From Rhodanobacter denitrificans (GTDB taxonomy: Bacteria > Pseudomonadota > Gammaproteobacteria > Xanthomonadales > Rhodanobacteraceae), in NCBI GenBank assembly GCA_017848855.1, contig JAFIHF010000004.1, forward strand, positions 170,086-234,085: a stretch of 64,000 bases of DNA, written 5' to 3'. Every line of letters begins with the position of its first letter. Position 1 is the stretch's first letter. The notes beneath the pieces were generated by a model. It made no database searches. It was not told where the DNA came from and saw only the letters and a program-made list of their open reading frames with translations. Of the stretch, positions 33,771 through 52,622 are shown piece by piece. Made by a program: the position numbers and the translations under genes.

Positions 33771-35989
33771 GCCAGACCAACTTTCTGATCGGACGTGGCG
33801 AGCTGCTGACCCACGAAATCAAGGGTCCCAAGCGCGGCATGGACAAGGCCGAGGTTTACACGCTGCAGCAGGCGAGGAGTCGGTTGACGCCGCAGTTCGT
33901 CGAAGTGGCGACGAGCCTCGATAACTTGCCCGACAACGCCTGTCCGGGGGATTTGGGCGTAGCGCGCCTTACACTCAATCCCAGCTACATCGCGCGCTCC
34001 TTCTTCCCGGTGGCCATGCTGCGCAGCGCGGGCCTTGAATCGGTCGGCAGCAGGGCCGTCAAACTCACTCCGGATGCCTGGTCCAAGAAGGGACCACCAC
34101 GCGAGTCGGCCACCACGGAGCTTTTCGTGGTCGGTAGGCGCCAAGCATTCCGCCAGTTGAAGGACTGGGCGGGACGACTGGAAGAGGGATCGAACGAAGC
34201 GAAGGACCTGTCGCATATCGAGCGGTTTTCCGCCTTCGAACCGAAGGACCGCATCGTCTCCCTGGGCAAGGATAAGGATCGCTTCTTCGAAGTCGGCATC
34301 CATCTGCTTCCCGGTGACAACGACCAGTTCGTGCAACGCGCGTTCGCCAAGTATGCGGCCCATGTCGGCGTGACGATCCATGCCGACCTGGCCTTCAATG
34401 CAGGCAACCTGTGGTTTCTCCCGGCCGAAGGCAAGCACGACAACGTCAAGCGCTTGGCCGAGTTCTCCTTTGTGCGCGTGATTCGTCCCATGCCGAAACT
34501 GCGTGGCATGCGCCCCGTGCAACGCTCGGCGGGCGTGACGGTGGCATGCAGCCTGCCGACGGAACAACCACTGTCGTCCGAACCCAAGGTGGCCATCCTT
34601 GACGGCGGCCTGCCCAAGCAGCACAGCATCGCACCGTGGGTGCGGACCTATCGGGTGCTGGATGAAAAGGCGGCGGATGATCCGGGCGGCTTGGAGCACG
34701 GCCTCGGCGTAACTTCGGCATTCCTATTCGGCCCCATCGCTCCAAATGGCACGGCGGCACGCCCTTACTCCTATGTCGATCACTTGCGTGTTCTGGATCG
34801 CGAGACCGAATCGGAAGATCCCCTGGAGCTGTACCGCACACTGGGACTTATCGAAGAAGTTCTGCTCTCACGCCAGTACCAATTCATCAATCTCAGTCTG
34901 GGGCCGGACCTTCCGATTGAGGACACGGACGTGCATGCCTGGACTTCTGTGGTCGACGATCTGCTCAGCGATGGCGATACGTTGATGACCGTGGCCGTTG
35001 GCAACAACGGCGAAATGGATCGGTCGGCGGGCAATGCCCGTGTGCAGGTACCTGCGGACTGCGTCAATGCGCTATCCGTGGGCGCTGCCAACAACATCGA
35101 TGGGACGTGGTCACGCGCCGCCTACAGTGCCATTGGGCCTGGGCGCAGTCCCGGCGTGGTGAAGCCGGACCTCATGGCCTTCGGTGGGGACGCCGCCAGC
35201 TCCAAGTATTTCCATGTGCTGGCAGCAGGCGCGAAGCCGACGCTGGTGCCGCAGTTGGGCACCAGCTTTGCGTCGCCATATCTGTTGCGCAATGCGGTCG
35301 GCGTCCGGGCGATCCTCGGCGCGGATTTGACTCCACTGGCCATCAAGGCCTTGCTCGTTCATGCCGCTGACCCGTCCACCCACGACAAGCTCGAAGTGGG
35401 TTGGGGCAAAGTGCCGGAAGATTTAATGGATGTCATCACTTGCCCGACCGGCGTGGCAAGGGTGGTCTATCAGGGCGAGTTGAAGCCGGGCAAGTTCCTG
35501 CGTGCAACGCTCCCCCTGCCTGCTGGTGGCCTGCAAGGCAACATTCGTTTGAAGGCAACCTTCTGCTATGCCTCGCCGACAGACCCGCAAGATGCTGTCG
35601 CCTACACGCGCGCTGGCCTGGAAGTCGTATTCCGACCCAGCGACAAGAAGGTCAAGGAAGGCAAGACCAACGCTGACACAAAGGGCTTCTTCAGCATGAA
35701 GAAGTACGCTACGGAGGAAGAACGTCGTTCCGATCTGGGCAAGTGGGAGACGGTTCTGCACGGCAACAAGTCCATGCGGGGCAGTAGCCTCGACAACCCT
35801 GTGTTCGACATCCACTACAACGCCCGAGAGGCCGGCGGGCCGACGACCAATGCCGAGAAGATTCGCTATGCCCTGATCATTACGGTTGAAGCGCCCAAGC
35901 ACGTGGATCTCTACAACGAGATCCTGCGTGCTTACGCGAAGACGCTGGTGCCGATCCAACCGAAGATCACGTTGCCGGTTCGCGTGTAG
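33767..35989 (+). CDS. ietS: Subtilisin-like S8 protease of an IetAS-like defence pair
   Basis: A 740-residue protein. It has a ~260-residue N-terminal regulatory region followed by an S8 peptidase domain: Asp279 in AILDGGL, His311 in LEHGLGV, and Ser500 in GTSFASPY. A ~170-residue C-terminal beta-rich region follows. There is no signal peptide, so it acts in the cytoplasm, as expected for a phage-triggered protease. All three catalytic residues are intact. It shares a start/stop overlap with the ATPase, and the ATPase is thought to gate the protease. The gap to the convergent helicase is 59 bp. Confidence 0.82.
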   Translation: MSQTNFLIGRGELLTHEIKGPKRGMDKAEVYTLQQARSRLTPQFVEVATSLDNLPDNACPGDLGVARLTLNPSYIARSFFPVAMLRSAGLESVGSRAVKLTPDAWSKKGPPRESATTELFVVGRRQAFRQLKDWAGRLEEGSNEAKDLSHIERFSAFEPKDRIVSLGKDKDRFFEVGIHLLPGDNDQFVQRAFAKYAAHVGVTIHADLAFNAGNLWFLPAEGKHDNVKRLAEFSFVRVIRPMPKLRGMRPVQRSAGVTVACSLPTEQPLSSEPKVAILDGGLPKQHSIAPWVRTYRVLDEKAADDPGGLEHGLGVTSAFLFGPIAPNGTAARPYSYVDHLRVLDRETESEDPLELYRTLGLIEEVLLSRQYQFINLSLGPDLPIEDTDVHAWTSVVDDLLSDGDTLMTVAVGNNGEMDRSAGNARVQVPADCVNALSVGAANNIDGTWSRAAYSAIGPGRSPGVVKPDLMAFGGDAASSKYFHVLAAGAKPTLVPQLGTSFASPYLLRNAVGVRAILGADLTPLAIKALLVHAADPSTHDKLEVGWGKVPEDLMDVITCPTGVARVVYQGELKPGKFLRATLPLPAGGLQGNIRLKATFCYASPTDPQDAVAYTRAGLEVVFRPSDKKVKEGKTNADTKGFFSMKKYATEEERRSDLGKWETVLHGNKSMRGSSLDNPVFDIHYNAREAGGPTTNAEKIRYALIITVEAPKHVDLYNEILRAYAKTLVPIQPKITLPVRV

Positions 35990-36048: not shown

Positions 36049-38802
36049 TTAACCCCACGCCGCGCTCATCAGCGTGGCGAGATCCCGTCGCGAGAGCACT
36101 TCTGTAAATTCGCGCCAGTCCTTCTCCGGCGGCATCATCGTGCCGGTGTATCGCAGGTCGAAGCCCGTGGCGGTCTTCTGCGCGTTGATGTACTCATCCA
36201 ATCTCTCGCCGAGCGTCTCGATGTCATCGATCCACTCGTCCTTGATGGTGTCCGGCAGCGAGCCGAAGAGGTCGTAGCGGTTCTTCATGCGCTCGGACAG
36301 GCGCTCGTAGATTTTCTCGTCCACGGTCTGCTCGAACACGAGGTTCAGCATGTCCACGGTTTCACGACGCTGCCCAAAGCGCTTGATGCGGCCGATGCGT
36401 TGTTCAAGTCGCGTAGGGTTCCACGGCAGATCAACGTTGATCAGTGTGCCGAGGGATTGCAGGTTCAAGCCCTCGCACGCGGCATCTGTGGCCACCATAA
36501 CGCGAATCTGGTGCTCGGCCACCATGCGCTTGAGCGTCTCGCGTTCGACGGTCACGCTGTCGCTGCGCTGATACAGGCGGCTGCGGCCCGCGCCTGCGTA
36601 TAAGCCGACGGCCTCTTCCGGATAGCGGGCCGCCAGCGAATCGGCCAGCCACTTCGCCGTGTCGTAGTACTGGCTGAAGATGATGACGCCCAAGCCCAGC
36701 CACTTCTCCCTGTCGAGGAAGTGAACGACAGCCTCCATCTTCGGGTCGGCATCCAGCCGCTCCAACCGGGCGATCAGGCGTTGCAGCACCTCGCGCTCCT
36801 CGCCCGTCTCGACCTTGAGGTCGGCTTCTTGCTCTTCGTCCTCTTCATGCACTGCCTCGCCTTGCAGCAAGCGCCGTGCGGTTGCCAAGCCCGCATGGAT
36901 GCTGGAGCAGATGCGCTGCTCCATCAGGTTCTTCATGAAGCCGCTGCCCTTGCCGCGCTTGGCCAGCGCCTTGCCGAAAGCGCGGGCCTCGCCATAAGCC
37001 TGGCGGAAGTCCTCCGACGTGCGCAACGCCTTGCCTTCGAACAACACGTCGAAGGCGCGCTGCTCCGTGACCTGCTCGCGTTCGGGATGAACATCCACAC
37101 CCACGGGGGTCAACAGAGGCTTGCCGTCCTTGTCTTTCGTTTCCTCGAGCTGCTGGCGCTTGCGCAGCACGACATGGCGCACCAGAGGGTTCTCACGCTG
37201 GAAAAGGGTGGCTCCGGCGATGCGGCGTTCCAGCTCCTCTTCCAGAATCTCCCGCGTTTCCTCCGTCAAGTCGGCGAGCGAACGGTTGGTCTGCCACTCG
37301 CCGTTCTGCAAGCCCAAGTCTTGCCGGATGGCGGAGAACAAGCGCCGGGCGCGAGGTTCAGTGGTCGACTCCGTGCGCGGCAGCGGCGAGCGCAGCAGCT
37401 CCCAAGCATGGGCGAGAGTCTCCACCTCCACGCGGCCCGCGAGAACGTCAAGCACGTCGTCGGGACGATGCCAGGCGGCGAGGTCATGACCCAGCACGAA
37501 GCGTCCCGGGCCTTGATGCAAGATGCCCAGCAAATCCCACAGATCGGCGGGATTGGTCTGAATCGGCGTGGCCGTTCCCAACAGCACATGGTCTGCGCGC
37601 GCAGCGATCTCGCGCATGAAAGCCAGCAGCTCGTTCGGCGTGCCGGCCTCCTTGCCGAAGCCCTGGCGCGTTCTGGCTTTGTGCGCTTCATCCAGAATGA
37701 CGACGCCGAAGTGCATACCCAGCAGGTGCTGCTTTTCCAGCGAATCACGCATCATCAGCCCGGTGGAGACGATGCCGATCCGCAGCGGGCAATGGGCGAT
37801 CTGCTCGCGCCCCGCAGGGGAAATAACTCGCTCCTCCGCGTCCAGCCAGACCTTGCCCACGGTATCCCAACGTGCGGTCGGGATACCGAGCTTGTCCAGC
37901 ATCTCGGTCTGCCATTGCTCGGTCAGCGTGGCAGGGGCGAGGATCACCACCGGACGGCGCGGGCCATTTTCCTTGTCAGACAGCAGGCACAGCGTCAGCG
38001 CGGCGGTGGCCAGAGAGAGCGTCTTGCCTAAGCCCACCTCGTCGGCCAGCAGCAGGCGTACCGTGCCGTATAGGCGTTGGTGCCGCAGGCACTCGGTCAG
38101 GAAGCCCTGCTGCCACGGCTGGAGCTGCTGCCCCTCGCGGTACAGCGGCGACTCGATCAGTGCCGCAGGCGCAAGGTTCTCATCGTCCTCAATCTCGGTG
38201 AACTCAATTTCGCGCCGATAGCCGCGCCGATGCACCTCGCGGATGACGGCCTGCGGCAGTGGCTTGGCGGCGTTCCAGAGGAAGTCGAATTCCTCCTCGA
38301 TCCACGCTACGCCTTCCTGCGACTCGTCTTCCCACAGGATTTCGTAGTGGCGCTGCCAGCCGCTGCGTGTCTCGTTCATCGAGCCGATAAAACCCAGCCT
38401 GCGGCCATCGGCCAGCGTGATCACGCCTGCCTTGCCATGCACGAAGCCGCAGATGTCGTCGGGCGCGACGCGCACCGCTGGCCCGTGCTTCTGGAGGAAG
38501 GAATCCAGACACCGGTAGCGTTCGCGGTTCAGCAGCGCCTCAGCTTCCAGGCCGCGCTCGTTCCAACGGCCCAGCATCTTGCTCTCGCGCAGTTGCGCCA
38601 CCTTCAAGTCTTCTGGGTGGATGTCCACATTGCAGACGATCTTGACCTCCGGAATGTGCTCCAAGGCTTCGCCTGCTACCTCGAACAGAGAACTGGTGAA
38701 GTAGCCCGCAATGCGCTTGTAGCTCTTCGCGCCAATCAGATGCTGCATCAGGAAGCTCGCATCCAGCCGGTGAGTACGCGAAGAAAAGCGCCGGATGCTC
38801 AT
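36049..38802 (-). CDS. PLD-domain SNF2/DEAH helicase (anti-phage-associated)
   Basis: A 917-residue protein with a PLD-like N-terminus (GFVHGKAGVITL, GFIGSMNET). The helicase motifs are LLADEVGLGKTLS, VVILDEAHKAR, LGTATPIQTNPADLWDLL and the C-terminal QRIGRIKRFGQ. It is the last gene of the seven-gene operon, 11 bp after the DUF1156 methyltransferase. Homologues are associated with DUF499/DUF1156/DUF3780 genes in defence islands. It may be the effector nuclease-translocase that attacks unmodified DNA. Only one HxK-type PLD motif is clear, so nuclease activity is inference. Confidence 0.85.
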   Translation of the reverse strand: MSIRRFSSRTHRLDASFLMQHLIGAKSYKRIAGYFTSSLFEVAGEALEHIPEVKIVCNVDIHPEDLKVAQLRESKMLGRWNERGLEAEALLNRERYRCLDSFLQKHGPAVRVAPDDICGFVHGKAGVITLADGRRLGFIGSMNETRSGWQRHYEILWEDESQEGVAWIEEEFDFLWNAAKPLPQAVIREVHRRGYRREIEFTEIEDDENLAPAALIESPLYREGQQLQPWQQGFLTECLRHQRLYGTVRLLLADEVGLGKTLSLATAALTLCLLSDKENGPRRPVVILAPATLTEQWQTEMLDKLGIPTARWDTVGKVWLDAEERVISPAGREQIAHCPLRIGIVSTGLMMRDSLEKQHLLGMHFGVVILDEAHKARTRQGFGKEAGTPNELLAFMREIAARADHVLLGTATPIQTNPADLWDLLGILHQGPGRFVLGHDLAAWHRPDDVLDVLAGRVEVETLAHAWELLRSPLPRTESTTEPRARRLFSAIRQDLGLQNGEWQTNRSLADLTEETREILEEELERRIAGATLFQRENPLVRHVVLRKRQQLEETKDKDGKPLLTPVGVDVHPEREQVTEQRAFDVLFEGKALRTSEDFRQAYGEARAFGKALAKRGKGSGFMKNLMEQRICSSIHAGLATARRLLQGEAVHEEDEEQEADLKVETGEEREVLQRLIARLERLDADPKMEAVVHFLDREKWLGLGVIIFSQYYDTAKWLADSLAARYPEEAVGLYAGAGRSRLYQRSDSVTVERETLKRMVAEHQIRVMVATDAACEGLNLQSLGTLINVDLPWNPTRLEQRIGRIKRFGQRRETVDMLNLVFEQTVDEKIYERLSERMKNRYDLFGSLPDTIKDEWIDDIETLGERLDEYINAQKTATGFDLRYTGTMMPPEKDWREFTEVLSRRDLATLMSAAWG

Positions 38803-38813
38803 GCTTCAGGCCC

Positions 38814-41768
38814 TCAGTCGCCGAAGCGCAGGTTCTTCAAGCGCGCGCCCAGCACCTCGGCGGCGTTGCGAACCTCCGGCTCCGACGATTTGCGCTCGAT
38901 GAAGGTCAGCACATCCACCAGCAAGGGCCGGATTTCGAGGAAGTCCGCCATCTCGCTGCGAATCTGATCGACGATGACCTGCGGCTCGGCGTCCTTCAGC
39001 AGTTGCTGCAAGGCGATGATCAGCCGCCCCAGCCGGGTGGCACCGATCTCGGTGGCGTCGGTCAGCTCGCGCGAGGCGTACTCGCTCATGCGCTTCAGGC
39101 GCGCGTGGTTGGGCCGCATGTCGCCCATCACGCGGGCGTAGTCCTCGACGTGGAAGGCTTTGGCGAAGTTCTGGTAGTTGTCCAGCTTGGCCGAGCCGGT
39201 GGTCTCCATGTCCAGCATCCGCAGCACGAAGCGCTCGATGCCCGTGAGCTTGGCCCACGCATCCGCCGTCAATCCTTCGGGCACCAGCAGACTGGACGCG
39301 GTTTCCGCCGCCTGCTGCACGATCTCATCCACCACGGTGACTTCCCCCCGCGCGCGCGGGCGCAGCGCGAAGCTGGTGACATCCTCGCCGCCGATGTGGG
39401 TGTAGGCGGTCAGCACCTTCAGCGCCGCCGCGTATCCTGCCATCTGCAAGTCAGAGTCGTTGAACACCGGCTCGCCGTGATGCGCCTTCACTGTGTCGTT
39501 CAGGTGCATCATGCTTTCGATCTGACGGGCCACCTCCTGCCGCACGGCGGGCAGCAGGCGCTGCTTGAAGCCGGTGCGCTCGCCAGCGGCGCGCTTCTTG
39601 AGCATCAGGATCACCGTGCCCTGGACGTAGCCCCCCTTCTTGAGCTCGGAGGTCGTCTCGGTGGCGATGTACCAGGCGGCCACGACTTGTAGGCCCGCCG
39701 CCCAGAAGATGCCGATGAGGTCGCTCCAGACGCCGGTGTCCTGGTGGGTGAACATCACGCATTGCAGGCCGTTGTCGGGCATGTGCTCGGCCATGGCCTG
39801 GTAGGCGGCCACCATGCCGCGCCGGAAGTCTTCACCCGCGCCTTTGATCGCGAGTGCCCGCCGCGAGTCCCAGACCCATTCGTCGAACGGCTTGGGCGGA
39901 TTCTTGCGCAGCCAGGCGATGAAGAACTCGGTGATCTCGTGGTAGTTGACCGCGTCGGCGTAGGGGGGGTCGGTGATCCAGAACTCGCAGCGCTGCCGGG
40001 GTTGGTCGGCCGATGAAGACACAATAATGCGATCGACATCAGGCATCGCTGCCCTGCTCAATTCAAAAAAGTCCGGGCTAAACCTGATATATCCGCGACA
40101 CGCATAGTTGTAAAAAACATTCAGCGCTTGGTTATAAAAAACATGCTTCGGACCTCCTTCACCCTGTGTAGGCAGCCATTGACATAACTTTGCGTAAAAG
40201 TTGAGCATCTTTGCGATGTTCAACCAACCCATTGGCGCTTCAGGCGTCTTTTTCCAAGCGCCAATTGTCAAAGCCATGTTCAGCAACTGCCGCGCATTGA
40301 ACAAATGATGCCAATGCGTCCAGCCGCGCTCGCGGAATAAGCGCGTGGTCTCGTCCCCCGGCTCGATGGCCATGTCCGGCACCAGGCCTTCGTCCTGCCA
40401 GCGGGCAAGGTTGGCGGCGACGATCGCTTCCACCTGGCGCTCGCGTTCCAGGTCCGCTTCGGTGGGCGCAGCAAACCAGGTCTCTTGGCGGCCGGCCTCG
40501 ATCGTTTCCTTCTTGATCCATTGGACGCAGTACAGCCGCTCCTGGAAGATGTCATCGGGTCTCGGCCGGAACTCGTCCTTGTCCCACCGGCGCAAACGGT
40601 TGCCCGTCGTGCCGTCGGGTAGCCGATAGTCGCCACGCAAGGTCTTGATCGGGGTGCGGTAGGTCTTGCCATCGAGCTGATAGACCATGTCGCCGTCTTG
40701 CACCGTGCCGGTCTCGGCTGCTGCAATCGCCTTCGCCGAGGCACCGGTGACGACCTCGATGTCAAAGCGCTTCAGGGCAGGGTTCGGCACCAGCTTGGCA
40801 ATGGCGCCTTGCTTGGGCGAGATCACCCAACTGGGGGCGAGCGGCACCCTCCAGCCGGTTTCCGGGCAGCGCGCCTCCAGGCAGTAGAGGTAGGCCTTGG
40901 CGCGGTTGCCGTGTTCGTCGTGCTCGACGCCTAACCGCGTGATCTCGGCATCCACCTCGGCAAACACCCGCTGCTGCGCGGACTTCAGGGCGGCGCGCCG
41001 GTCGGCCGGGGCACCGATGACATTGAGCGCGCCCCAGGTGAGCATGCAGGCGATGGGGTTGAGATCAGAGGCATAGGCATCGCACCCGATGCGTGCTGCT
41101 TCGAACGGGATGGATCCGCCACCGCTGAAGGTGTCGCCCACGCGCGGGCGGTGGCCATAGCGCAGGATGCCGAATTGCTCAACCAGTTCCGGCAGCGACC
41201 GCACGTTCACGCCCAAGTGCGCGTAGTGGCGATTGACCTCAGCCCACACCGGGGCGTAGAGCCAATCCTGATCCACTTCTTCCGGGCGTTTGCCCAGACT
41301 GGCCCTTTCTTCGTAGCTCGACAGCGTGGCCAGCGCGCGCCGGTACAGGACGAGCTTTTCGTCGTCGGTGATTTCGCGCCGCCAACCACGTCCGCTGAAG
41401 TAGCGTTCCGGGTCGGAAATCGGGATGATCTCGTGCAGTGTCGTGGCCGAGTAGGCATTGGCAGCCAGCGCGCGGCGCGCCAGACCTTCATCGTCGAAGG
41501 CCATCAGCTTCTCGAAAATGGCGAGGTCTGCTTCCGCGTCGTCGGTGGGGGGTAACAAGCTGCCCAGCACGATGGCCCGCACGAGAATCAGCGGCTTGCG
41601 GCCTTTCCAGTACGAGCCCAAGCCGGTCAAGGTCTGCGCCGCGACCGCCTTGCGTTCACTTTGCGCCTCGAACGAAACCTTCTGTGCGGGAAAAACCGAT
41701 TGAATCAGCGCGGGCGCATCTTTCAGGGCCAGGGGCGTGAGCGTTGTCGTTATTGTCTTTGCATGCAT
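38814..41768 (-). CDS. DUF1156 adenine-specific DNA methyltransferase
   Basis: A 984-residue protein. GDTFSGGGSIPFEAA near residue 210 is the SAM-binding motif. DPPY near 600 (ITDPPYADAV) is the catalytic motif of N6-adenine methylases. The DUF1156 N-terminal segment is visible at residues ~20-130. Between about 40,050 and 40,290 the DNA becomes AT-richer than the rest of the gene (residues ~493-573), pointing to an exchanged segment just ahead of the catalytic motif. It lies 13 bp downstream of DarG. It likely marks self DNA in the DUF499 system. Confidence 0.88.
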   Translation of the reverse strand: MHAKTITTTLTPLALKDAPALIQSVFPAQKVSFEAQSERKAVAAQTLTGLGSYWKGRKPLILVRAIVLGSLLPPTDDAEADLAIFEKLMAFDDEGLARRALAANAYSATTLHEIIPISDPERYFSGRGWRREITDDEKLVLYRRALATLSSYEERASLGKRPEEVDQDWLYAPVWAEVNRHYAHLGVNVRSLPELVEQFGILRYGHRPRVGDTFSGGGSIPFEAARIGCDAYASDLNPIACMLTWGALNVIGAPADRRAALKSAQQRVFAEVDAEITRLGVEHDEHGNRAKAYLYCLEARCPETGWRVPLAPSWVISPKQGAIAKLVPNPALKRFDIEVVTGASAKAIAAAETGTVQDGDMVYQLDGKTYRTPIKTLRGDYRLPDGTTGNRLRRWDKDEFRPRPDDIFQERLYCVQWIKKETIEAGRQETWFAAPTEADLERERQVEAIVAANLARWQDEGLVPDMAIEPGDETTRLFRERGWTHWHHLFNARQLLNMALTIGAWKKTPEAPMGWLNIAKMLNFYAKLCQWLPTQGEGGPKHVFYNQALNVFYNYACRGYIRFSPDFFELSRAAMPDVDRIIVSSSADQPRQRCEFWITDPPYADAVNYHEITEFFIAWLRKNPPKPFDEWVWDSRRALAIKGAGEDFRRGMVAAYQAMAEHMPDNGLQCVMFTHQDTGVWSDLIGIFWAAGLQVVAAWYIATETTSELKKGGYVQGTVILMLKKRAAGERTGFKQRLLPAVRQEVARQIESMMHLNDTVKAHHGEPVFNDSDLQMAGYAAALKVLTAYTHIGGEDVTSFALRPRARGEVTVVDEIVQQAAETASSLLVPEGLTADAWAKLTGIERFVLRMLDMETTGSAKLDNYQNFAKAFHVEDYARVMGDMRPNHARLKRMSEYASRELTDATEIGATRLGRLIIALQQLLKDAEPQVIVDQIRSEMADFLEIRPLLVDVLTFIERKSSEPEVRNAAEVLGARLKNLRFGD

Positions 41769-41781
41769 CGCGTGTTCTTCT

Positions 41782-42840
41782 TCAATGGGTCGCCACGGCT
41801 TCGGGCGACAGCCAGCCCTGCGATTTCAGTCGTTCTTCCGCGATGGCGAGCTGGCGGGGCGTGAACTGCTGCTTGCGGGCGTTCCAGTCGTAGACCCGAC
41901 GCGCCACGCTGTCGTGTTGGGTCGCGCCTTCGCGGCTCATCACCCAATGGACGGTGGCCAGCAACTCCAGGCCGTAGGGCGATTCGAAACCTTCGACCAG
42001 GCGCGTGACGCGCTCGAAGCGGGCACGGCTGCTTTCGTGCTGGTCGAGGTAGTCCTTGGCTTCCTCCGCTGCGCCCGGCACGAGACTCAAGGGCTTATCG
42101 GGCGCGTCGCCGCCGTCGGCGTAACCCGCGATCAGGTGACCTTCGACCGCGCGCAGCACATGGCGCAGGTTTTCCGCGTAGGGGCCGTAATGATGCTTTA
42201 CGTAGTTGAGCCGCAACGGCTCACCGGCCTCCTGCATAAAGTACATGAGCTTGTGGACTTCCAGCAGGGTGACAAAGGGGTCGAGCAAGCCGCCGAGGTA
42301 ACGTTGAATGAGCTCAACCAAAGCAGCCCGGCCCGCCGTCATCTTGGGCACTTCCCGAACGTGGGACATTTTGTCGCTGGCAGGGGCGCCGTTAGGTTCG
42401 AACACGAGCACCTGCACATCGGCAAGGTCCGTCAGGGCCCGCTCGATGCGGGGGCGCACCTCGTTCCAGTCCAGCCCACCCAGGCCACTGCCCAGCGGGG
42501 GGATGGCAATGGAGCGAATGCCTTTGTCGCGGATGACCTTGACGAGATCGGCAAGGCCCGACTCGATGTCCTCGATGCGGCTCTTGCCGCGCCAGTGGCG
42601 CTTAGTGGGAAAGTTGATGATGAAGCGCGGCGGCGTGAGCTGGCCCGTCTCGTAGACGAACATGCGGCCCGGCTGTACGGCTTCGCGCTTGCAGGCAGCC
42701 TCGTAAGCCTTGAAGTTTTCGGGGTAGACGTTCTTGAACTGCAAGGCGATGCCGCGCCCCATCACACCAACGCAGTTGACGGTGTTGACCAGCGCGTCGG
42801 CCTCACATTTGAGGATGTCGCCCGAGGTGTACTCGATCAT
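41782..42840 (-). CDS. darG: DarG-like macrodomain antitoxin
   Basis: A 352-residue protein starting MIEYTSGDILKCEADALVNT. The macrodomain occupies residues ~1-155 (VNCVGVMGRGIALQFK, PLGSGLGGL). It should remove ADP-ribose from DNA thymidine. The second half (VHKLMYFMQEAGEPLRLNYV) has the DarG C-terminal/SocA-Panacea-like look that binds and blocks DarT. The gene starts 18 bp after DarT. Key macrodomain residues are present, so the antitoxin looks intact. Confidence 0.93.
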   Translation of the reverse strand: MIEYTSGDILKCEADALVNTVNCVGVMGRGIALQFKNVYPENFKAYEAACKREAVQPGRMFVYETGQLTPPRFIINFPTKRHWRGKSRIEDIESGLADLVKVIRDKGIRSIAIPPLGSGLGGLDWNEVRPRIERALTDLADVQVLVFEPNGAPASDKMSHVREVPKMTAGRAALVELIQRYLGGLLDPFVTLLEVHKLMYFMQEAGEPLRLNYVKHHYGPYAENLRHVLRAVEGHLIAGYADGGDAPDKPLSLVPGAAEEAKDYLDQHESSRARFERVTRLVEGFESPYGLELLATVHWVMSREGATQHDSVARRVYDWNARKQQFTPRQLAIAEERLKSQGWLSPEAVATH

Positions 42841-42858
42841 GGCTGTGCTCCTCTCATT

Positions 42859-43506
42859 TCAGTAATACCAGTCCGCGCGGACTTCGACCGTGGGCCGATG
42901 CCCGTGCGCGGGAAGGGCGTTGACCACTTGGCCGTAGACGGCGGCCGAGTGAACACCGATACGTTCGATCAGGTGCCAAGGGAAGCGGTGCTCCAGCAGA
43001 AACTCCGCTTGCTTGCCTTCCTTGTGCGCCCGCCAGTCACGGGCCTGCACGGCAGTCCAATTGATCTCGCCCAGATGCGCAAGATCGCTGCGGTCCTCGA
43101 AAAAATATGAGCCTGCATTCGAGAGCGTGAAAGCCCAGCGCGCGGGCTGCGCGTTGGCCCATGCAACGACGGCGTGCAGGTCGGCCTCGAAGTGCAGGAT
43201 CGGCCCTTGCCCGCCACGATAGGCCAACTCCTGATGGTTACCCTGGTAAATCAGGTAGAGCATCACGGAGCGCGGGCAGAAATAGAACGGCACACAGTCG
43301 CCGACGTGCAGGTCGGCGTAGCTGCCCAAGGGCAGCGTCAGCCGCCGCTGCTTGATGCTGCTCATGCCGATGGTCGTGCCCGCAGGCCCGCGCCTGATGA
43401 CCTCCGCATCGCACCACAGGAAACCGTCAGCCACGATGGAGGGCAGACGATCTACATGGGCGATGTGGTAGATCTTTGGCTGCGGCGGCACGAGCACGGC
43501 GTTCAT
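42859..43506 (-). CDS. darT: DarT DNA ADP-ribosyltransferase toxin (DUF4433)
   Basis: A 215-residue protein. His14 in KIYHIAH and Arg54/55 in the IKQRRLTLP region fit the NAD+-binding positions. GKQAEFLLE supplies the catalytic Glu (near residue 168), the DarT hallmark. It ADP-ribosylates thymidine in single-stranded DNA and stops replication. The gene overlaps DUF3780 by 4 bp and precedes DarG, so toxin and antitoxin sit inside a larger defence operon. All expected catalytic residues are visible, so it is probably active unless held by DarG. Confidence 0.92.
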   Translation of the reverse strand: MNAVLVPPQPKIYHIAHVDRLPSIVADGFLWCDAEVIRRGPAGTTIGMSSIKQRRLTLPLGSYADLHVGDCVPFYFCPRSVMLYLIYQGNHQELAYRGGQGPILHFEADLHAVVAWANAQPARWAFTLSNAGSYFFEDRSDLAHLGEINWTAVQARDWRAHKEGKQAEFLLEHRFPWHLIERIGVHSAAVYGQVVNALPAHGHRPTVEVRADWYY

Positions 43507-44129
43507 GACGTCTCGTCCCCGAACAGGTCAAGCGAGGGGCGGATGTCGTCCTTGCCACGGCTGCTGCGGCGTGCGCGCGGGGCGAGCAAGTCGCTTTGCG
43601 CCACGTCGCCCAAGGCATGTTTCAGGGCGGCGCGCCAGCCCTTGCCCGCGTCCATAAGGCCGCCCGTGCTCATCGCGGTCATACCGAAGAGCCACCAACG
43701 TTCTTCCGGGCGCAGCGCCAGCCAGTTGCGGACGGCGACCGGAATCTTCTCCGTATCCATCTGCTCGACGGCCCACGCCAGCACGCACAGTTCCTTGCCG
43801 AGCAGGCGGTCCACCGGGTTGTCGCCGACCTTCCACGCACCGGGCCTCAAGCCGTGCGCGGACAAGCGCGCGTTGAAGGCTCGTTGCACCTCGGCGCGGA
43901 TCGCCGTCCAGCGCGGGCGATCCAGCAGGACGCGGTCGATGACCGCGCTGTCGGCGCTGGCGGCCTGCAAGCCGAGGTGTTCGCTGATCTGGACCTTGCC
44001 GGTGCTGCTCTTGGGGATGACGACCTTGAAGTGATGCGGGTCGGAGGTCGCAGGCACACCGAAGCCCAGCGTGTGCGGCACTTGCGCGCGCGCCTTGGGT
44101 GATTCGGTGTTTGCTGCGGCCTTGGCCAT
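43503..44129 (-). CDS. DUF3780 protein (anti-phage-associated)
   Basis: A 208-residue protein starting MAKAAANTESPKARAQVPHT. It has VPHTLGFGVPATSDPHHFKV and PEERWWLFGMTAMSTGGLMD, matching DUF3780. That family is found with DUF499 and DUF1156 genes; its biochemical role is unknown. ATG 44129 is preferred because AGGAGG lies 7 nt upstream; an in-frame TTG at 44135 is possible. It begins 2 bp after the DUF499 stop and overlaps DarT by 4 bp. Confidence 0.83.
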   Translation of the reverse strand: MAKAAANTESPKARAQVPHTLGFGVPATSDPHHFKVVIPKSSTGKVQISEHLGLQAASADSAVIDRVLLDRPRWTAIRAEVQRAFNARLSAHGLRPGAWKVGDNPVDRLLGKELCVLAWAVEQMDTEKIPVAVRNWLALRPEERWWLFGMTAMSTGGLMDAGKGWRAALKHALGDVAQSDLLAPRARRSSRGKDDIRPSLDLFGDETS

Positions 44130-44131
44130 CG

Positions 44132-47100
44132 TCAATCCTCCTGACTCACTTCGCCTGGTTTCAACTCAATCCCGGCGAGCTTGGCAAACTCCTTCAGCGC
44201 GAAGCCGGTATCGAAGTGAACGCCGTCGGCAATGGCAATGTTGAGCGGTGCGTCGGGCTCTTTGAGCACCTCGCGCAGGCTGTTGACGACCCCTTCGATG
44301 ATGGCCGCCGTGACCTCGCGCTCCTGAAAGCGAACGGTCACGGTGTTCTCGCCTTCGCCGATTTCGACGCGCACGCCCTTGAAGCGCGTGCCCGGTTGAT
44401 CGCGGAAACGGTTGATGACGCCGAAGACGCGGTCGGTCGTGTCGAGAGCGACGCGCTTGCTTTGCAGACGCGCGGGCTTGCTGTCGACGATCTGAACCGT
44501 CTTGTCCCCACTAGCGGGAATCTGAAAGTCCGCCGTCTTGTTGGCTTCGCCCGCACGAGCGAACACCAGCAGTCGGTAGCTCGCGGCACCGATCTCGAAC
44601 GGCCCCTCGTAGCGGGTTCCGTCCTTGGGATTGGAACCGTCCAGGGTGTAGAAGAGGTCGGCGCGCGGCGTAGCGGCTAGGACGACACGGCGCTTGTCGG
44701 CGGCAGGCTCGACCTGATGGCGAATCTTTAAGTCGGCGAGCCAGCGCGTGGCAGGGCCGCTCTCGTAGCGACCTGTCGGCTCCTTCACCATGAAGTAGAC
44801 CGTGCCCTCGCCTGTGGCAAAGTTCTCTAGATCCTCGATCTTGTGATCCTTGTCCGACACGTCGGGCTTGGTCGACCAATAAACGACGGGGCTTTCGCCC
44901 GCGTGGCGCGGCGTGAGGCTGAGAACCGTTTCGCCCGTGTCCGGCTTGACGTTGACGACGGAGACGTTGACGGTGGCCTTGTCTTTGGGGAACGGCCCCT
45001 TCTCGATGTAGCCGTCCTCGCCCAAGCGCCAGCGGCCTTGCTTCAGGGCTTCGGTCTTGAGGGCGTCCAGTCCGCTCGAGCCCGGCATCCACGGCCAGAT
45101 GGGCGAGCACTTGGCCCGGGTGGCTACGTCCTTCCACGGTGTGCGGCGGTTGTCCTTGCCAGACGGCCACAGATATTCCTCGGCCTGCGCGAAGTATTCG
45201 TCGAGGTTGTCCTTGCCGAGTTCGGCCACGAGCTTGTAGTCGGCGCGCGGACTGGACAGCAGTTTCTCGATCTGCGTCTCAGCGGACTGGTCGCCTTGGC
45301 CGAGCTTTAACCCCTGGTCAATGCTTACCTTGCCGAGGACATCACGCCCGTCGGAGGCGTCATTCGTGGGGATGTAAAGGCAGTTGTAGGCCGCCGACAG
45401 CGCCTTGCCGAACCGATCCTCGGCCTCCTCGAGGCGGTCGCGGGCCTCCTCGAACAAGGTATCGCCGGGCTTGAGCCGCTTGTGAATCTGCTCGATGGCG
45501 TACAGCTCGCGCAACCGTTCCTCCACCGCGTCGGCCAGCAGGCTGTCCTGGCCCGTCAGCACCAGAAGGTTGTTCTTCTCCTGCTGATAGTCGAAGAAGT
45601 TCTGCAATTCGCTGGGCGGCACCTTGCCATCAGGCTTAATGACGATCAGCGTGCGCGGGCCGCCGAGCTTGAGTTCGTCCAGCTTGGGCAGCACCTGCAC
45701 GTCCTGATAGGCGATCTTGCGGACTGGATCGAGGATGCCCGCGAGGCGGTTGATGAGCGCCTGATCGACCTTGGGCTGCGGAACCTCCTTGGCGTTGCGC
45801 TCGATCTGGCGCGACAGGTTCTCGGTTTCCTTGATGAAGAAGCGTTGCTCTTCGCGGTGGAGATACCACGCCGATTCACGCAGCCGCTGCAATGCCTGAA
45901 GGAACTCGTCTGGCTTCCGCTGCGGTGCGGCAAGGAACTCGATCAGCTCGCTTTCGGACAGGCCGATGCGCCCGCCGACGGCGCGCGACAAGCTGGAAGC
46001 CAGCAGCAAGGTCATGACCTGCTGCGCGGAATCGCCAGCCAGCTCGACATCGATGTGTTCGGCGATGGCGTTGCTCTTGTCGGCGATGTCCCGCGTCACC
46101 GCAGGCATCAGCTTCGGCGCGATACGCTCGATCTCGTCTTTGACCTGTTCGTCGTTGAGGTTGAGGTGCTGTGTGCCGACCAGAAAGACATCGTCGGCTT
46201 CGCGCTCGTCCACGCTCTTGAGCAGGCGTGCGGTGAACTGCATCAGGCCACGGGTCTGGCGGAAACCTTCGTTCTCCTTGAACAGCGCGACGAGGTGCTT
46301 GAAGGACGGATGGAAGGGGTAGGTTTCCCTGACCTGCTCGGCGATCTGCTCGATGCTGCTGGCCACGATGTAACCGCCGTCCTCGGCCTTCTTGACTTGC
46401 TGCGCGTATTCCTCCGCGATGTCGGAGACGACGCGCTCGTCCGGCAGTTCGTCGATAAGGCGCTTCTTGAGGATTTCGTAGATTTCGTTGCCCGCCAGTT
46501 GCACCGGCGTGATGGTCATCGCCTGACGGCGGGTTTCCTGCTGCAAGTTGGAAATGGCATCGGCGAGCGCCTTGGTCTGGGCCTTGTAACTGCCCGAGAG
46601 GTTGGCGACCACGATGGCGCAATTCGGCAGCTCCAGCGCGGCGCTCATCAGGCTGGAGAGGCTGTAGACCACCATGTTGGCCAGCGTGCCCTGACCGAAC
46701 ACTTGCGTGCTGGCGTTGTCGAGGTAAGGCGGAAGCTCGTCCAAAAGGATCAGCGTCGGCTTGTCGCCGATGATTTCCTTCCAAACGCGCTGATCGACCG
46801 CCTTCGGCCCGTTGGCCCAGTACGGCTTGATGGCTTCGGCGGCGCCGAGTTGGGTGGCGATTTCGCCCCAGATGTAGTTGTCAGGACTGTTGCGGCCGTT
46901 GAACGCGGCAATGCGCGCATTGCCGAATTCGATGCGCGAAGCCAAGTCAGCGGGCAAGACGTCCTTGCGCAGATGTGGATGCCGCGCGAGCAGGCCAAGC
47001 GCGATCATCATGTGCGTCTTACCGCCGCCCATTGCCTGCGTCAGTTCGAAGACGGCTTGGTCGGACTTGCCGGACAGGCGCAGCAGACCCTCACGGAAAA

Positions 47101-47257
47101 GCTGATCCATGCCGTGGGTGACATAGTTGCGCGAGAAGAACTCGCGGCCGTCCCCCGCGTCATTGATGAGCTCTGCGAGGTTCTCGATCCCCTGGCTCAT
47201 CCGGTAGTCGCGGATGATGGGATTGAACCGGCAGGCTTGCTTGACCGTCTTGATCAT
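44132..47257 (-). CDS. DUF499 AAA-type ATPase (anti-phage-associated)
   Basis: A 1041-residue protein. Walker A AMGGGKTHMM lies at residues 75-84 and Walker B TLILLDELPPYL around 170. Conserved DUF499 segments HPSFKHLVALFKENEGFRQT and RGLMQFTARLL follow. The C-terminal ~250 residues look beta-rich with sugar-binding-like repeats (RVVLAATPRADLFYTLDGSN). ATG 47257 has GGAG 7 nt upstream and overlaps the RHH stop by 4 bp. The longer open frame to 47617 runs across the RHH gene and is not the true start. It is probably the motor that controls DNA scanning. Confidence 0.88.
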   Translation of the reverse strand: MIKTVKQACRFNPIIRDYRMSQGIENLAELINDAGDGREFFSRNYVTHGMDQLFREGLLRLSGKSDQAVFELTQAMGGGKTHMMIALGLLARHPHLRKDVLPADLASRIEFGNARIAAFNGRNSPDNYIWGEIATQLGAAEAIKPYWANGPKAVDQRVWKEIIGDKPTLILLDELPPYLDNASTQVFGQGTLANMVVYSLSSLMSAALELPNCAIVVANLSGSYKAQTKALADAISNLQQETRRQAMTITPVQLAGNEIYEILKKRLIDELPDERVVSDIAEEYAQQVKKAEDGGYIVASSIEQIAEQVRETYPFHPSFKHLVALFKENEGFRQTRGLMQFTARLLKSVDEREADDVFLVGTQHLNLNDEQVKDEIERIAPKLMPAVTRDIADKSNAIAEHIDVELAGDSAQQVMTLLLASSLSRAVGGRIGLSESELIEFLAAPQRKPDEFLQALQRLRESAWYLHREEQRFFIKETENLSRQIERNAKEVPQPKVDQALINRLAGILDPVRKIAYQDVQVLPKLDELKLGGPRTLIVIKPDGKVPPSELQNFFDYQQEKNNLLVLTGQDSLLADAVEERLRELYAIEQIHKRLKPGDTLFEEARDRLEEAEDRFGKALSAAYNCLYIPTNDASDGRDVLGKVSIDQGLKLGQGDQSAETQIEKLLSSPRADYKLVAELGKDNLDEYFAQAEEYLWPSGKDNRRTPWKDVATRAKCSPIWPWMPGSSGLDALKTEALKQGRWRLGEDGYIEKGPFPKDKATVNVSVVNVKPDTGETVLSLTPRHAGESPVVYWSTKPDVSDKDHKIEDLENFATGEGTVYFMVKEPTGRYESGPATRWLADLKIRHQVEPAADKRRVVLAATPRADLFYTLDGSNPKDGTRYEGPFEIGAASYRLLVFARAGEANKTADFQIPASGDKTVQIVDSKPARLQSKRVALDTTDRVFGVINRFRDQPGTRFKGVRVEIGEGENTVTVRFQEREVTAAIIEGVVNSLREVLKEPDAPLNIAIADGVHFDTGFALKEFAKLAGIELKPGEVSQED

Positions 47258-47451
47258 GAGCGCACTCCGTGGTTGTTCTTGGTTTCCTCGGAGGACGGAA
47301 TTGCAATGCCGCGCTGCTCGCAGTAGTCCCGAATCAGAACCTCGACCATGTTCGCTATGGATCGGTGTTCCTGATCCGCTGCGATGCGAAGGGCCTCCTT
47401 CAACCCGGGGTCGATGCGAAAAGTCAGCGTGGCAGTCTTGATGTTGGCCAT
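47254..47451 (-). CDS. Ribbon-helix-helix regulator heading the DUF499 operon
   Basis: A 65-residue protein starting MANIKTATLTFRIDPGLKEA, with ALRIAADQEHRSIANMVEVL, the Arc/MetJ/CopG-type ribbon-helix-helix pattern. The first strand (TATLTFRIDP) would contact DNA. GGAGAGG precedes ATG 47451. The stop overlaps the DUF499 start (ATGA). A palindrome 27 bp upstream of its ATG is a likely operator. It probably represses the whole toxin-containing operon, which would keep DarT and the nuclease quiet until needed. Confidence 0.85.
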   Translation of the reverse strand: MANIKTATLTFRIDPGLKEALRIAADQEHRSIANMVEVLIRDYCEQRGIAIPSSEETKNNHGVRS

Positions 47452-47617
47452 AGCCTCTCCAGAAACCACTGCAAATGTACTGCACTTTACAGTATCGCAG
47501 CGTTTCCCGCAATGCGGAGTGGCTCCGGCCTGCGCGCCCATCCGCCAGGGTGACCAGTCCGGGCCGGAGCGGCGCGCGGGGCACTTGGCGGGAGTCGTCG
47601 GAGGCGGGAAGCATCAT
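47452..47617 (-). pseudogene. Truncated small ORF behind promoter repeat 5, cut by cargo insertion
   Basis: The start ATG at 47617 (MMLPASDDSRQVPRAPLRPG) lies 28 bp from the -10-like box of repeat copy 5. The frame continues without stop into the defence operon instead of ending after ~100 residues like the other repeat-driven genes. The first ~40 residues may be the remnant of a small phage gene split by arrival of the defence cargo. The rest of this 330-bp gap holds only the operator and promoter of the RHH operon and the repeat. Identity of the original gene is unknown. Confidence 0.4.
47478..47494 (-). promoter_or_regulatory. Palindromic operator before the RHH-DUF499 operon
   Basis: TACTG, seven bases (CACTTTA), CAGTA forms an inverted repeat in an AT-richer stretch directly upstream of the RHH gene. 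Dyads of this length and placement are typical RHH dimer sites. CTGCA repeats flank it. It is the natural place for autorepression. Confidence 0.5.
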
Positions 47618-47782: not shown

Positions 47783-49147
47783 CTACGCGGGCCGGTACAC
47801 CCGCGTTGGCGTGCCCGGCGCGTCGGCTGGCCGCTCGACCCACTGCACGCTGATTTTGGGCGGCGTGCTGCCCAACAGGTGCTCCAGGCTGGCGTCGATC
47901 CGCGCCTTGGACACCTTGCCCCGGAAGCACTCCGCGCTGATCTGGCTTCGCGTGGCCTGACCGCGCTCGCGCAGGAACGCCAGCACGCGGTTCGACAGCT
48001 CCAGCACCTGCGCCAGCTTCGCCTCCTCGGCGGCGCTGACGAACACGAAGCGCACGGATGCCGTGGCGTGGCGAATCCATGCCGTCGCCGCGTCAATGTG
48101 TTCGGCATCGATGCGGGTTTGCAGATCGGTCAGCGCCATCAGCATCGCCAGCCGTAGCAGCATCGGGGCGCGGCGCTCCAGCAACGCTCCGACTGCTCCG
48201 TCGCCGAAATCGTCGTTCAGTTCGCCCCGGTAGAGCTGGGCGTAGCGCCATTGCGCCTGCGGCGAGAGCTCCATCCGCAGGTGGTCGCGCTGGTCGTGCC
48301 GATTGGCACGAACGAAGGCCAACACCTCGAGCGTCCTGCGCGCCAGATGCTCCACCACCGCCTGCGGCGTCTCCTTCGGGAACGGCAGCATCCGCGTGCG
48401 TTCGGCCCAGATCATCAGGAAGCGATTGGCGAAACCGTTGGTGAGTTCGCGGGCGCTCATCAGGCCGGTCAGTTCGCCGGGCGAGATCGCACCGCTCAGG
48501 CAGAGGTGCGGCTGGCTGGCGTAGAGCCGGTTCGACTTGGTGGCGGGTTTGAGATCGACGCCATCCCAACAGTCGCGCAGCGCCGCCGACAGCGTGTTGC
48601 CGTCGCGCCGTCCCTGATGCAGCACGTTGGCGAACTCGGATTCGATCACCCACAGCCGCTTGTCCTCGATGGCGGGAACCTCCTGTCGGCCTTGCCGGTA
48701 GCCGTCGTGCATCAGCGCCACCAGTCCTTCGCGGCTGGACAGGCCGCCGCGATGAATCTGCGGCGCGAAGGCCTCGTCCATCGCGCGCAGCGCCTGATCG
48801 ATGCGCAGCACCAGCGACACCGCGTCGCCCTTGCGGCCACGGCCCGAGCGCCCGACATGCAAGCAGAACAGCCGCGCGTGGTGGCGGGTGTTGCCGACAG
48901 GCAGGTACACGCCGCGCCCGACCGCGCAGGACAGATAGGCCATGAAGTTGGCGGCGATGGCGACTGCGTTGGTTTCCGTGCCTTCGCTGCCGGCATGGGC
49001 CACGTCGCCGGTCAGGCCATGCATGCACGCCGGATCGGCCACGGGCGCGTTGCGATGCGCGACCATCGCCGCCTCTCCGCCGTCATCGGCATCGTCCGGC
49101 GGTGATGTGGCGTGCGGTCGGTGAATGGCATCGCCGATCCGTCGCAT
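47783..49147 (-). CDS. DUF3987 family protein (YfjI-like), phage/plasmid helicase-like
   Basis: A 454-residue protein. It has an altered P-loop-like GRSGRGRKGDAVSLVLRI and FANVLHQGRRDGNTLSAAL, plus PHLCLSGAISPGELTGLMSA and later RFLMIWAERTRMLPFP, all typical of DUF3987 proteins on mobile elements. It is thought to act in replication. It starts directly after the RepB2 stop (TGA then ATG), so it is the last gene of a four-gene coupled operon with the recombinase and the two RepB proteins. There is no promoter repeat in front of it. Confidence 0.75.
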   Translation of the reverse strand: MRRIGDAIHRPHATSPPDDADDGGEAAMVAHRNAPVADPACMHGLTGDVAHAGSEGTETNAVAIAANFMAYLSCAVGRGVYLPVGNTRHHARLFCLHVGRSGRGRKGDAVSLVLRIDQALRAMDEAFAPQIHRGGLSSREGLVALMHDGYRQGRQEVPAIEDKRLWVIESEFANVLHQGRRDGNTLSAALRDCWDGVDLKPATKSNRLYASQPHLCLSGAISPGELTGLMSARELTNGFANRFLMIWAERTRMLPFPKETPQAVVEHLARRTLEVLAFVRANRHDQRDHLRMELSPQAQWRYAQLYRGELNDDFGDGAVGALLERRAPMLLRLAMLMALTDLQTRIDAEHIDAATAWIRHATASVRFVFVSAAEEAKLAQVLELSNRVLAFLRERGQATRSQISAECFRGKVSKARIDASLEHLLGSTPPKISVQWVERPADAPGTPTRVYRPA

Positions 49148-52484: not shown

Positions 52485-52622
52485 AGACCCGGTCACTCCG
52501 TGATTGGCGATCTCGGGTCTGCCGCCCCTTCAATGGACGCGCCGCCGCCGCACGGCGGCAACGCACACGGTTGGAATCGTTGCCATGCAGGATGTTCGAG
52601 AGAACCCGTTTTGGAAGCAAAG

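What the first reader, a model, noticed from the sequence alone, without database searches (positions are those of the whole stretch)
36049..47451. Seven-gene defence operon: RHH regulator, DUF499, DUF3780, DarT, DarG, DUF1156 methyltransferase, PLD-helicase
The genes are on one strand. Junctions range from 4-bp overlaps to 18-bp gaps, so it is one transcript. The DUF499/DUF1156/DUF3780/PLD-helicase set is known from defence islands but its mechanism is poorly described. Here a full DarTG pair is inserted in the middle, and an RHH gene heads the operon. DarT's catalytic residues and DarG's macrodomain look intact. One reading is that DarTG is a built-in tripwire: if the methyltransferase/ATPase part is attacked or lost, DarT is released.
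Basis: partly seen in the sequence, partly recalled or inferred. Interest (0 to 1): 0.87.

Follow-up and report, generated by a model that had tools for sequence, protein, structure and literature searches.

The report
Defence operon carrying an embedded toxin–antitoxin
A bacterial anti-virus operon related to BREX carries a DNA-modifying toxin and its antidote in its middle, and this arrangement recurs in many related loci together with a conserved small regulator and its DNA site, although the toxin does not seem to be a tripwire for loss of its host operon.

Summary
Observation confirmed. Window 36049-47451 (minus strand) is a tight seven-gene operon: RHH regulator, DUF499 ATPase, DUF3780, DarT, DarG, DUF1156 methyltransferase, PLD(HKD)-Snf2 helicase. 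The core is the "Type-2 BREX-related" system of PMC12839542 (2026), whose main text has no hit for DarT. DarTG is not a one-off insertion: 24 of the 80 nearest genome loci have it between DUF3780 and the methyltransferase and 3 more keep DarG remnants; the 25 of these 27 that could be placed lie in one core clade. DarT and DarG keep catalytic residues and purifying selection. RHH belongs to the core (58 of 101 loci, half outside the DarTG clade) and follows a conserved operator-like element. The junctions on both sides of the methyltransferase hold other defence genes in relatives. The tripwire is disfavoured: L019 and L021 keep intact DarTG after losing methyltransferase and helicase; four loci lost or broke DarT while core genes persist as far as their contigs reach. 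Closest precedent: EPEC RptR-TypeI-RM-DarTG2 (PMC12255303). Most likely DarTG is a co-regulated, self-contained second effector layer. New variant of a known kind.

The parts
47468..47494 (-). Conserved operator-like element TACTGTAAAGTGCAGTACATTTGCAGT upstream of the RHH start; the 17-base core is 47468-47484
   Evidence: 57 of 59 rows with RHH (window included) have the 17-base core within 4 mismatches in the 150 bases upstream of the start, 53 of these 57 at -33 or -34; high column information against low flanks, also in the 28 distinct rows outside the DarTG clade; one match, up to 1 mismatch, in the own genome as held
47254..47451 (-). RHH (ribbon-helix-helix) regulator, 65 aa, first gene
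   Evidence: Pfam RHH_5 E=1.3e-6, cut-off passed; homologue directly upstream of DUF499 in 58 of 101 loci tested
44132..47257 (-). DUF499 AAA+ ATPase, 1041 aa
   Evidence: NCBIfam NF042962 E=0, over cut-off; PADLOC DUF499 E=0; Fn3_assoc and CHB_HEX_C_1 matches towards the C-terminus
43503..44135 (-). DUF3780 protein, 210 aa
   Evidence: Pfam DUF3780 E=1.3e-76; NF042961 over cut-off; AlphaFold model pLDDT 81.5 with no PDB fold match at E<=0.001
42859..43506 (-). DarT, ssDNA ADP-ribosyltransferase toxin, 215 aa
   Evidence: Pfam DarT E=2.7e-60; nearest solved structure 7omv; R55 in 38 of 38, R54 in 37 of 38 and E168 in 37 of 38 DarT rows
41782..42840 (-). DarG, macrodomain antitoxin with C-terminal domain, 352 aa
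   Evidence: NF048014 E=4.5e-148; macrodomain like 5m3i, C-terminal part like 7yk3_B; K80 in 39 of 41 rows, the other 2 do not cover it
38814..41768 (-). DUF1156 N6-adenine-type DNA methyltransferase, 984 aa, with hypervariable segment about aa 481-600 (likely target recognition)
   Evidence: NF042963 over cut-off; DPPY at aa 600 and FSGGG at aa 214; identity 0.54-0.29 in aa 481-600, 0.76-0.95 after it and 0.63-0.94 before it
36049..38802 (-). PLD(HKD)-Snf2 helicase, predicted restriction effector, 917 aa
   Evidence: NF042964 over cut-off; PLDc_2, SNF2 and Helicase_C domains; H122, K124 and N143 in 67 of 67 rows

Best explanation
This is a methylation-based BREX-related (Type-2 BR) restriction operon, probably under its own small RHH repressor, with a complete DarTG pair (DarTG2-like by nearest structure) built in as a second, self-contained effector layer. 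Inferred steps: the RHH protein binds repeated TGCAGT-type half-sites upstream of itself and keeps the operon low; the DUF1156 enzyme marks host DNA at a motif set by its hypervariable segment; DUF499, DUF3780 and the HKD-helicase attack unmarked invading DNA; DarT is made together with the core but held and reversed by its own DarG, independently of the core. When infection proceeds (derepression, host shut-off, loss of labile DarG, or failure of restriction), DarT ADP-ribosylates thymidines in single-stranded, replicating DNA and stops phage replication or the cell. Shown here: anatomy, kept catalytic residues, purifying selection, one clade of cores that carry DarTG with embedded DarT and DarG grouping apart from others, conserved RHH and upstream element, intact DarTG where the core is lost. 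Not shown: repression, methylation, toxicity, base specificity, phage protection.
For: Core family membership. DarT and DarG at the same junction in 24 of 80 genome loci, DarG remnants in 3 more, and DarTG in 3 of the 30 viral contigs found with DUF3780. On a tree of 82 core rows the bearers that could be placed form one clade of 30 rows (SH-aLRT 100), and 2 changes suffice. Embedded DarT (29 rows, 84/96) and DarG (98/95) group apart from six other pairs; over 26 loci DarG divergence follows core divergence (Spearman 0.71), DarT less so (0.45). Median dN/dS 0.105 for DarT and 0.088 for DarG in 18 loci. RHH and upstream element conserved. Intact DarTG without MTase or helicase in L019 and L021. 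The junctions beside the MTase hold other defence genes in relatives. Precedent: DarTG2 inside a repressor-controlled Type I RM operon that protects E. coli from phage (PMC12255303: abstract, 12 of 16 found passages, discussion); DarTG behind hsdS also in my sample.
Against: No experiment. Joint inheritance would look the same if DarTG only stabilised the locus. None of the scorable loci seen outside the clade carries DarTG, so the core does not need it. RHH was not found in 43 of 101 loci, among them L071 of the DarTG clade and all 11 plasmid loci, some of which have an unmatched small ORF there. The operator role rests on conservation alone, and no sigma-70-like promoter was found. DarT follows the core tree only loosely and few branches of its tree are strong. 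The helicase PLD motif lacks the aspartate expected five residues after the lysine (D in 7 of 67), so its nuclease activity is not assured.
Confidence: 0.6

Rival explanations
1. Tripwire or guard: the core proteins or their methylation keep DarT silent, and loss or inhibition of the core by a phage releases DarT and kills the cell.
For: DarT start overlaps the DUF3780 stop, fixed position and one clade; PrrC inside a Type I RM operon works this way (recalled, not read here).
Against: L019 and L021 lost MTase and helicase but keep intact DarTG, with no other MTase of this kind or PLD-helicase found in those genomes (DUF499 was not searched there). L020, L022, L024 and L029 lost or broke DarT with core genes kept as far as their contigs reach. 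Related DarTG pairs occur with no BR core nearby. Caveats: in L019 the break in DUF499 may also silence DarTG; L021 has only one late stop in DUF499 between promoter and DarTG but is a MAG of 1.8 Mb; L020, L022, L024 and L029 are MAGs and assembly errors cannot be ruled out.
Confidence: 0.12
2. Addiction or stabiliser: DarTG rides in the operon mainly to punish loss of the mobile island; its defence value is incidental.
For: The operon sits in different surroundings: the window's serine recombinase-ParB flank was seen in 4 of 31 related loci, several of which have short flanks; where the pair decays DarT goes first or together with DarG; DarTG is kept after core decay in L019 and L021.
Against: A stabiliser could sit anywhere, yet position and order are the same in all bearers seen; the same junctions are filled in relatives by genes that are not all toxin-antitoxin pairs; DarTG systems can protect E. 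coli from phage (stated in PMC12255303; LeRoux 2022 seen only as a reference).
Confidence: 0.2
3. Direct biochemical coupling: the helicase complex opens unmarked phage DNA and supplies the single-stranded DNA that DarT modifies, so both act on the same molecule.
For: DarT acts mainly on single-stranded DNA (PMC12255303) and the core holds a predicted helicase and ATPase; fixed co-occurrence in one clade.
Against: No interaction evidence; DarTG of the same family occurs without any BR core; scorable cores outside the clade lack it.
Confidence: 0.08

Closest known systems
Type-2 BREX-related (BR) system, DUF499/DUF3780/DUF1156 MTase/HKD-helicase (PMC12839542; NCBIfam NF042961-64)
   Same: All four core proteins; Fn3-like match in DUF499; auxiliary effectors embedded in core loci are a described theme (nucleases)
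   Different: DarT, DarG, ADP-ribos, RHH and ribbon-helix-helix have no hit in that paper's main text; its supplements could not be read
EPEC RRDM island: RptR - Type I RM - DarTG2 - M48 (PMC12255303)
   Same: Small regulator gene first, repeated sites in front of it, modification and restriction genes, DarTG embedded in the middle
   Different: Core is Type I RM, slot is hsdS|hsdR; RptR is an all-helical 79-aa protein that binds TAGCTA, here a 65-aa RHH protein with a TGCAGT-type element; repression and protection shown there, not here
DarTG toxin-antitoxin system (7omv, 5m3i, 7yk3)
   Same: DarT arginines and glutamate, DarG macrodomain lysine and C-terminal domain
   Different: Not standalone; arranged in one operon with a restriction core
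Hma / Type-1 BR system
   Same: ATPase, MTase and helicase are distant relatives (HmaC E=7e-47)
   Different: By PMC12839542 Type-1 BR has no DUF3780 and no N-terminal HKD domain; models for the Type-2 set score far higher

Membership tests
Type-2 BREX-related system | DUF499 ATPase, DUF1156 N6-MTase and Snf2 helicase encoded together | tested here: met
   NCBIfam equivalogs over cut-offs, PADLOC E=0 for each
Type-2 BREX-related system | Standalone DUF3780 gene in the locus | tested here: met
   Pfam E=1.3e-76
Type-2 BREX-related system | N-terminal HKD (PLD) domain on the helicase | tested here: met
   PLDc_2 E=1.8e-9 at aa 48-176; H, K and N invariant in 67 of 67 rows, the aspartate not
Type-2 BREX-related system | Loss of the helicase TUDOR domain, RRM at the DUF499 C-terminus | not tested
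   No structure of these two proteins was predicted
Type-2 BREX-related system | Self-DNA protected by adenine methylation | not testable with these tools
   DPPY motif and hypervariable segment only
DarTG toxin-antitoxin | DarT fold with catalytic Glu and NAD-binding Arg | tested here: met
   Pfam, 7omv match and residue counts; which residue does what is recalled
DarTG toxin-antitoxin | DarG macrodomain hydrolase with essential lysine, adjacent to DarT | tested here: met
   the lysine's role is recalled
DarTG toxin-antitoxin | Thymidine specificity (DarTG2) and DarG-neutralised toxicity | not testable with these tools
   needs biochemistry; DarTG2 rests on the nearest structure and a recalled assignment
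RptR-controlled defence island | TAGCTA sites in the promoter | tested here: not met
   no TAGCTA in the 110 bases upstream of RHH as read
RptR-controlled defence island | RptR homologue as first gene | tested here: inconclusive
   the first gene matches Pfam RHH_5, while the paper describes RptR as all-helical and of no known class; the two sequences were not compared
Hma / Type-1 BR | Best match to HmaA, HmaB and HmaC | tested here: not met
   HmaA 7.9e-37, HmaB 1.2e-19, HmaC 7e-47 against E=0 for the Type-2 models

The most novel reading that the evidence does not exclude
DarTG is functionally wired to the BREX-related core: phage inhibitors that block the core (not mere absence of the core) or DNA opened by its helicase switch DarT on, giving a restriction system with a DNA-ADP-ribosylating second strike under one RHH switch, parallel to but evolved separately from DarTG2 in Type I restriction operons.
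Probability: 0.15. Interest if true: 0.82.

Novelty: new variant of a known kind. Interest (0 to 1): 0.55.

Why it matters
It extends the pattern of a DNA-modification defence with an embedded DarTG from Type I restriction to the BREX-related systems, and shows that there it is a shared trait of a clade and not a single accident. It gives part of the Type-2 BR systems a candidate regulator and a defined DNA element that the main text describing the system does not mention, so their control becomes directly testable. The two swap sites around the methyltransferase are a practical place to look for new defence effectors.

Tried and rejected
Random insertion of DarTG in one locus: rejected by 24 of 80 genome loci with DarTG and the clade structure. 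RHH as part of DarTG: rejected, 29 of 58 RHH loci lie outside the DarTG clade. Strict tripwire on core loss: disfavoured by L019 and L021. DUF3780 function by fold: no PDB match at E<=0.001 by fold, and only one sequence match at E=0.99. DUF499 and MTase against PDB sequences: no match at E<=0.01. A sigma-70 promoter for the operon: none found by the consensus scan.

Counts left open: 5 of 80 genome loci and 8 viral loci could not be scored at the DUF3780|MTase junction, and viral L133 gave no DUF3780 match in my re-search. Of 20 plasmid records with DUF3780 11 were opened. Duplicate contigs (L104-L106, L108) were dropped from trees and junction counts, but L104-L106 are still among the 38 DarT and 41 DarG rows, as are six DarTG pairs outside BR loci. 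Rows that could not be scored were dropped before counting changes on the tree. The 'other insert' class is any gap of 250 bp or more; in L083, for one, I found no plus-strand ORF of 60 aa in it. Of 290 background windows 3 had a close match to the upstream element; whether they overlap the true site was not checked. L019 and L035 have too little DUF499 for the core tree.
Full report
WHAT IS THERE. The operon lies at 36049-47451 on the minus strand. Genes in order of transcription: RHH 47254-47451, DUF499 44132-47257, DUF3780 43503-44135, DarT 42859-43506, DarG 41782-42840, DUF1156 methyltransferase 38814-41768, PLD-Snf2 helicase 36049-38802. The first three junctions are 4-bp overlaps; the others are gaps of 18, 13 and 11 bp. 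Pfam, PADLOC and NCBIfam agree on every gene except RHH, which only Pfam recognises. Upstream are a 454-aa ORF without a Pfam match, two ParB/RepB genes and a serine recombinase. Downstream, convergent and 59 bp away, is an IetA/IetS-like pair, and beyond it a prophage.

THE CORE IS KNOWN. PMC12839542 (I saw its abstract, found passages and part 1 of 2 of the auxiliary-effector section) defines Type-2 BR systems by DUF499, an N6-MTase with DUF1156, HKD-helicase and DUF3780, in 1120 taxa. Its main text has no hit for DarT, DarG, ADP-ribos, RHH or ribbon-helix-helix. Its supplements could not be read. Of the 8 library papers holding DUF499, DUF1156 or DUF3780 only this one holds two or more of them. 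Gao 2020 (Science), which I recall as the source of related candidate systems, is not held.

DARTG IS A TRAIT OF ONE CLADE. At the DUF3780|MTase junction 24 of 80 have DarT and DarG, 3 have DarG remnants only, 21 have another gap of 250 bp or more, 27 are empty and 5 cannot be scored. Of 30 viral contigs found with DUF3780, 3 carry DarTG. Of 11 plasmid loci opened, none does. On a tree of 82 DUF499+DUF3780 rows (quick method, SH-aLRT only, two long branches flagged) the bearers form one clade of 30 rows, SH-aLRT 100: 26 with DarT and DarG, 3 with remnants, and L042, where the place is taken by a Ppl-type and a Schlafen-type gene. L019 and L035 bear DarTG but have too little DUF499 to be placed. 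Two changes explain DarTG on the scorable rows; seven are needed for the three-gene PDC-M28-like module at the MTase|helicase junction. In trees of 35 rows the 29 embedded DarTs (84/96) and DarGs (98/95) group apart from six other DarTG pairs, four of whose long branches make their own places unsure.

THE PAIR LOOKS FUNCTIONAL. R55 of DarT is present in 38 of 38 rows and E168 in 37 of 38; the exception is the frame-broken L024. DarG lysine 80 is present in 39 of 41 rows, and the other 2 do not cover it. These rows include three duplicate contigs and six pairs outside BR loci. Median pairwise dN/dS in 18 rows is 0.105 (DarT) and 0.088 (DarG), against 0.044 to 0.139 for the core genes (17 rows for the helicase; pairs with dS outside 0.05-1.5 dropped). 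In 32 loci of the clade, DarT without DarG was seen in none (L035 runs off its contig inside DarG), while DarT lost or broken with DarG or a remnant kept was seen in 4. That is the expected polarity of a real toxin and antidote.

TEST OF THE TRIPWIRE. In L019 (Acidithiobacillus ferrianus) the match to DUF499 ends after 222 residues, near a frame that I read as transposase-like without a search; 69 residues of the MTase remain with two stops, and the helicase is absent; DUF3780, DarT and DarG are complete. A search of that genome found no other MTase of this kind and no PLD-helicase, only distant helicases. L021, in a MAG of 1.8 Mb, also lacks MTase and helicase and has one late stop in DUF499, with DarTG complete. 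Core loss therefore does not by itself doom the cell. Expression of DarTG in L019 and L021 is unknown. In the other direction L020, L022, L024 and L029, all MAGs, lost or broke DarT while core genes persist as far as the contigs reach; only L022 shows all four core genes. Inhibition of an intact core is a different trigger and stays open.

THE REGULATOR BELONGS TO THE CORE. A homologue of the 65-aa RHH protein lies directly before DUF499 in 58 of 101 loci tested, 29 at loci of the DarTG clade (L019 counted with it) and 29 outside. It was not found in 43, among them L071 and all 11 plasmid loci. In front of it lies TACTGTAAAGTGCAGTACATTTGCAGT: 57 of 59 rows carry the 17-base core within 4 mismatches, 53 of these at -33 or -34, while of 290 random 150-base windows from the same loci 287 had at least 5 mismatches. 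Columns on either side carry little information apart from a short T-rich stretch about 28 bases upstream and the ribosome-binding region. The core element occurs once in the window's own genome as held. Binding by RHH is inferred.

TWO SLOTS. In relatives the DUF3780|MTase and MTase|helicase junctions hold different genes. Tested by profile on single representatives: Schlafen-HATPase (L051, L042, L073), Ppl (L042), GmrSD (L084), PDC-M28ABC (L031), a UvrD-type helicase (L098), a DUF3368 protein (L092), an HTH antitoxin-like protein (L095). From plasmid annotation: VapC-type genes in L004 and L008. Named only by my reading of the sequences: MNT-HEPN-like pair, RelE-like genes, transposases. At the MTase|helicase junction 15 of the 64 scorable genome loci have a gap of 350 bp or more. 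The MTase between the slots has a hypervariable stretch at about aa 481-600, as expected of an exchanged target-recognition part.

COMPARISON. PMC12255303 (abstract, 12 of 16 found passages, discussion) describes DarTG2 inside a Type I RM operon headed by a small repressor, RptR, which binds three repeats and controls an island active against phage. pSYSG of Synechocystis and a Meiothermus plasmid also have DarTG between hsdS and hsdR. The present operon is the BREX-related counterpart, with a regulator matching another family and another insertion site.

VERDICT. Real and recurrent as a design; mechanism inferred. The most likely role is a co-regulated second effector (0.6), then stabiliser (0.2), tripwire (0.12), direct coupling (0.08).

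Noticed in passing
window 32613-35989 (+): IetA/IetS-like pair (AAA ATPase and subtilase) ends 59 bp from the operon, convergent; PADLOC matches 2e-76 and 1.1e-50 but below the NCBIfam cut-offs, so a divergent IetAS.
   Followed up: partly
window 7795-32451 (+): Prophage genes (gpA terminase, S49 peptidase, tape measure, lysozyme) beside the defence genes.
   Followed up: partly
window 47783-52496 (-): 454-aa ORF without Pfam match, two ParB/RepB genes and a serine recombinase; the recombinase-ParB flank was seen in 4 of 31 related loci (L023, L028, L039, L101; the 454-aa ORF only in L023 and L039), so the operon changes surroundings.
   Followed up: partly
L025, L031, L038, L051, L071, L074, L081, L097 (MTase|helicase junction): Three-gene module of about 3.1-3.3 kb, PDC-M28ABC by PADLOC on L031, the others by blastp clustering; at least seven changes on the core tree; the term PDC-M28 was in 0 papers of the library.
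   Followed up: partly
L162, L163, L166, L169, L172, L015, L017: DarTG directly or closely behind hsdS of Type I restriction operons; in L015 a nucleotidyltransferase gene and a zeta-toxin-family gene sit between hsdS and DarTG.
   Followed up: partly
window 39969-40328 (MTase aa 481-600): Sharp hypervariable segment up to the DPPY motif, likely the exchanged target-recognition part.
   Followed up: partly
window 36049-38802, helicase aa 122-133: The PLD motif keeps H, K and N in 67 of 67 rows but not an aspartate five residues after the lysine (7 of 67); D132, eight residues after it, is present in 64 of 67.
   Followed up: no
window 43503-44135: DUF3780 has invariant residues in a PEERWWL motif (EERWWL invariant) and a model, confident apart from its ends, with no fold match in the PDB.
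   Followed up: yes
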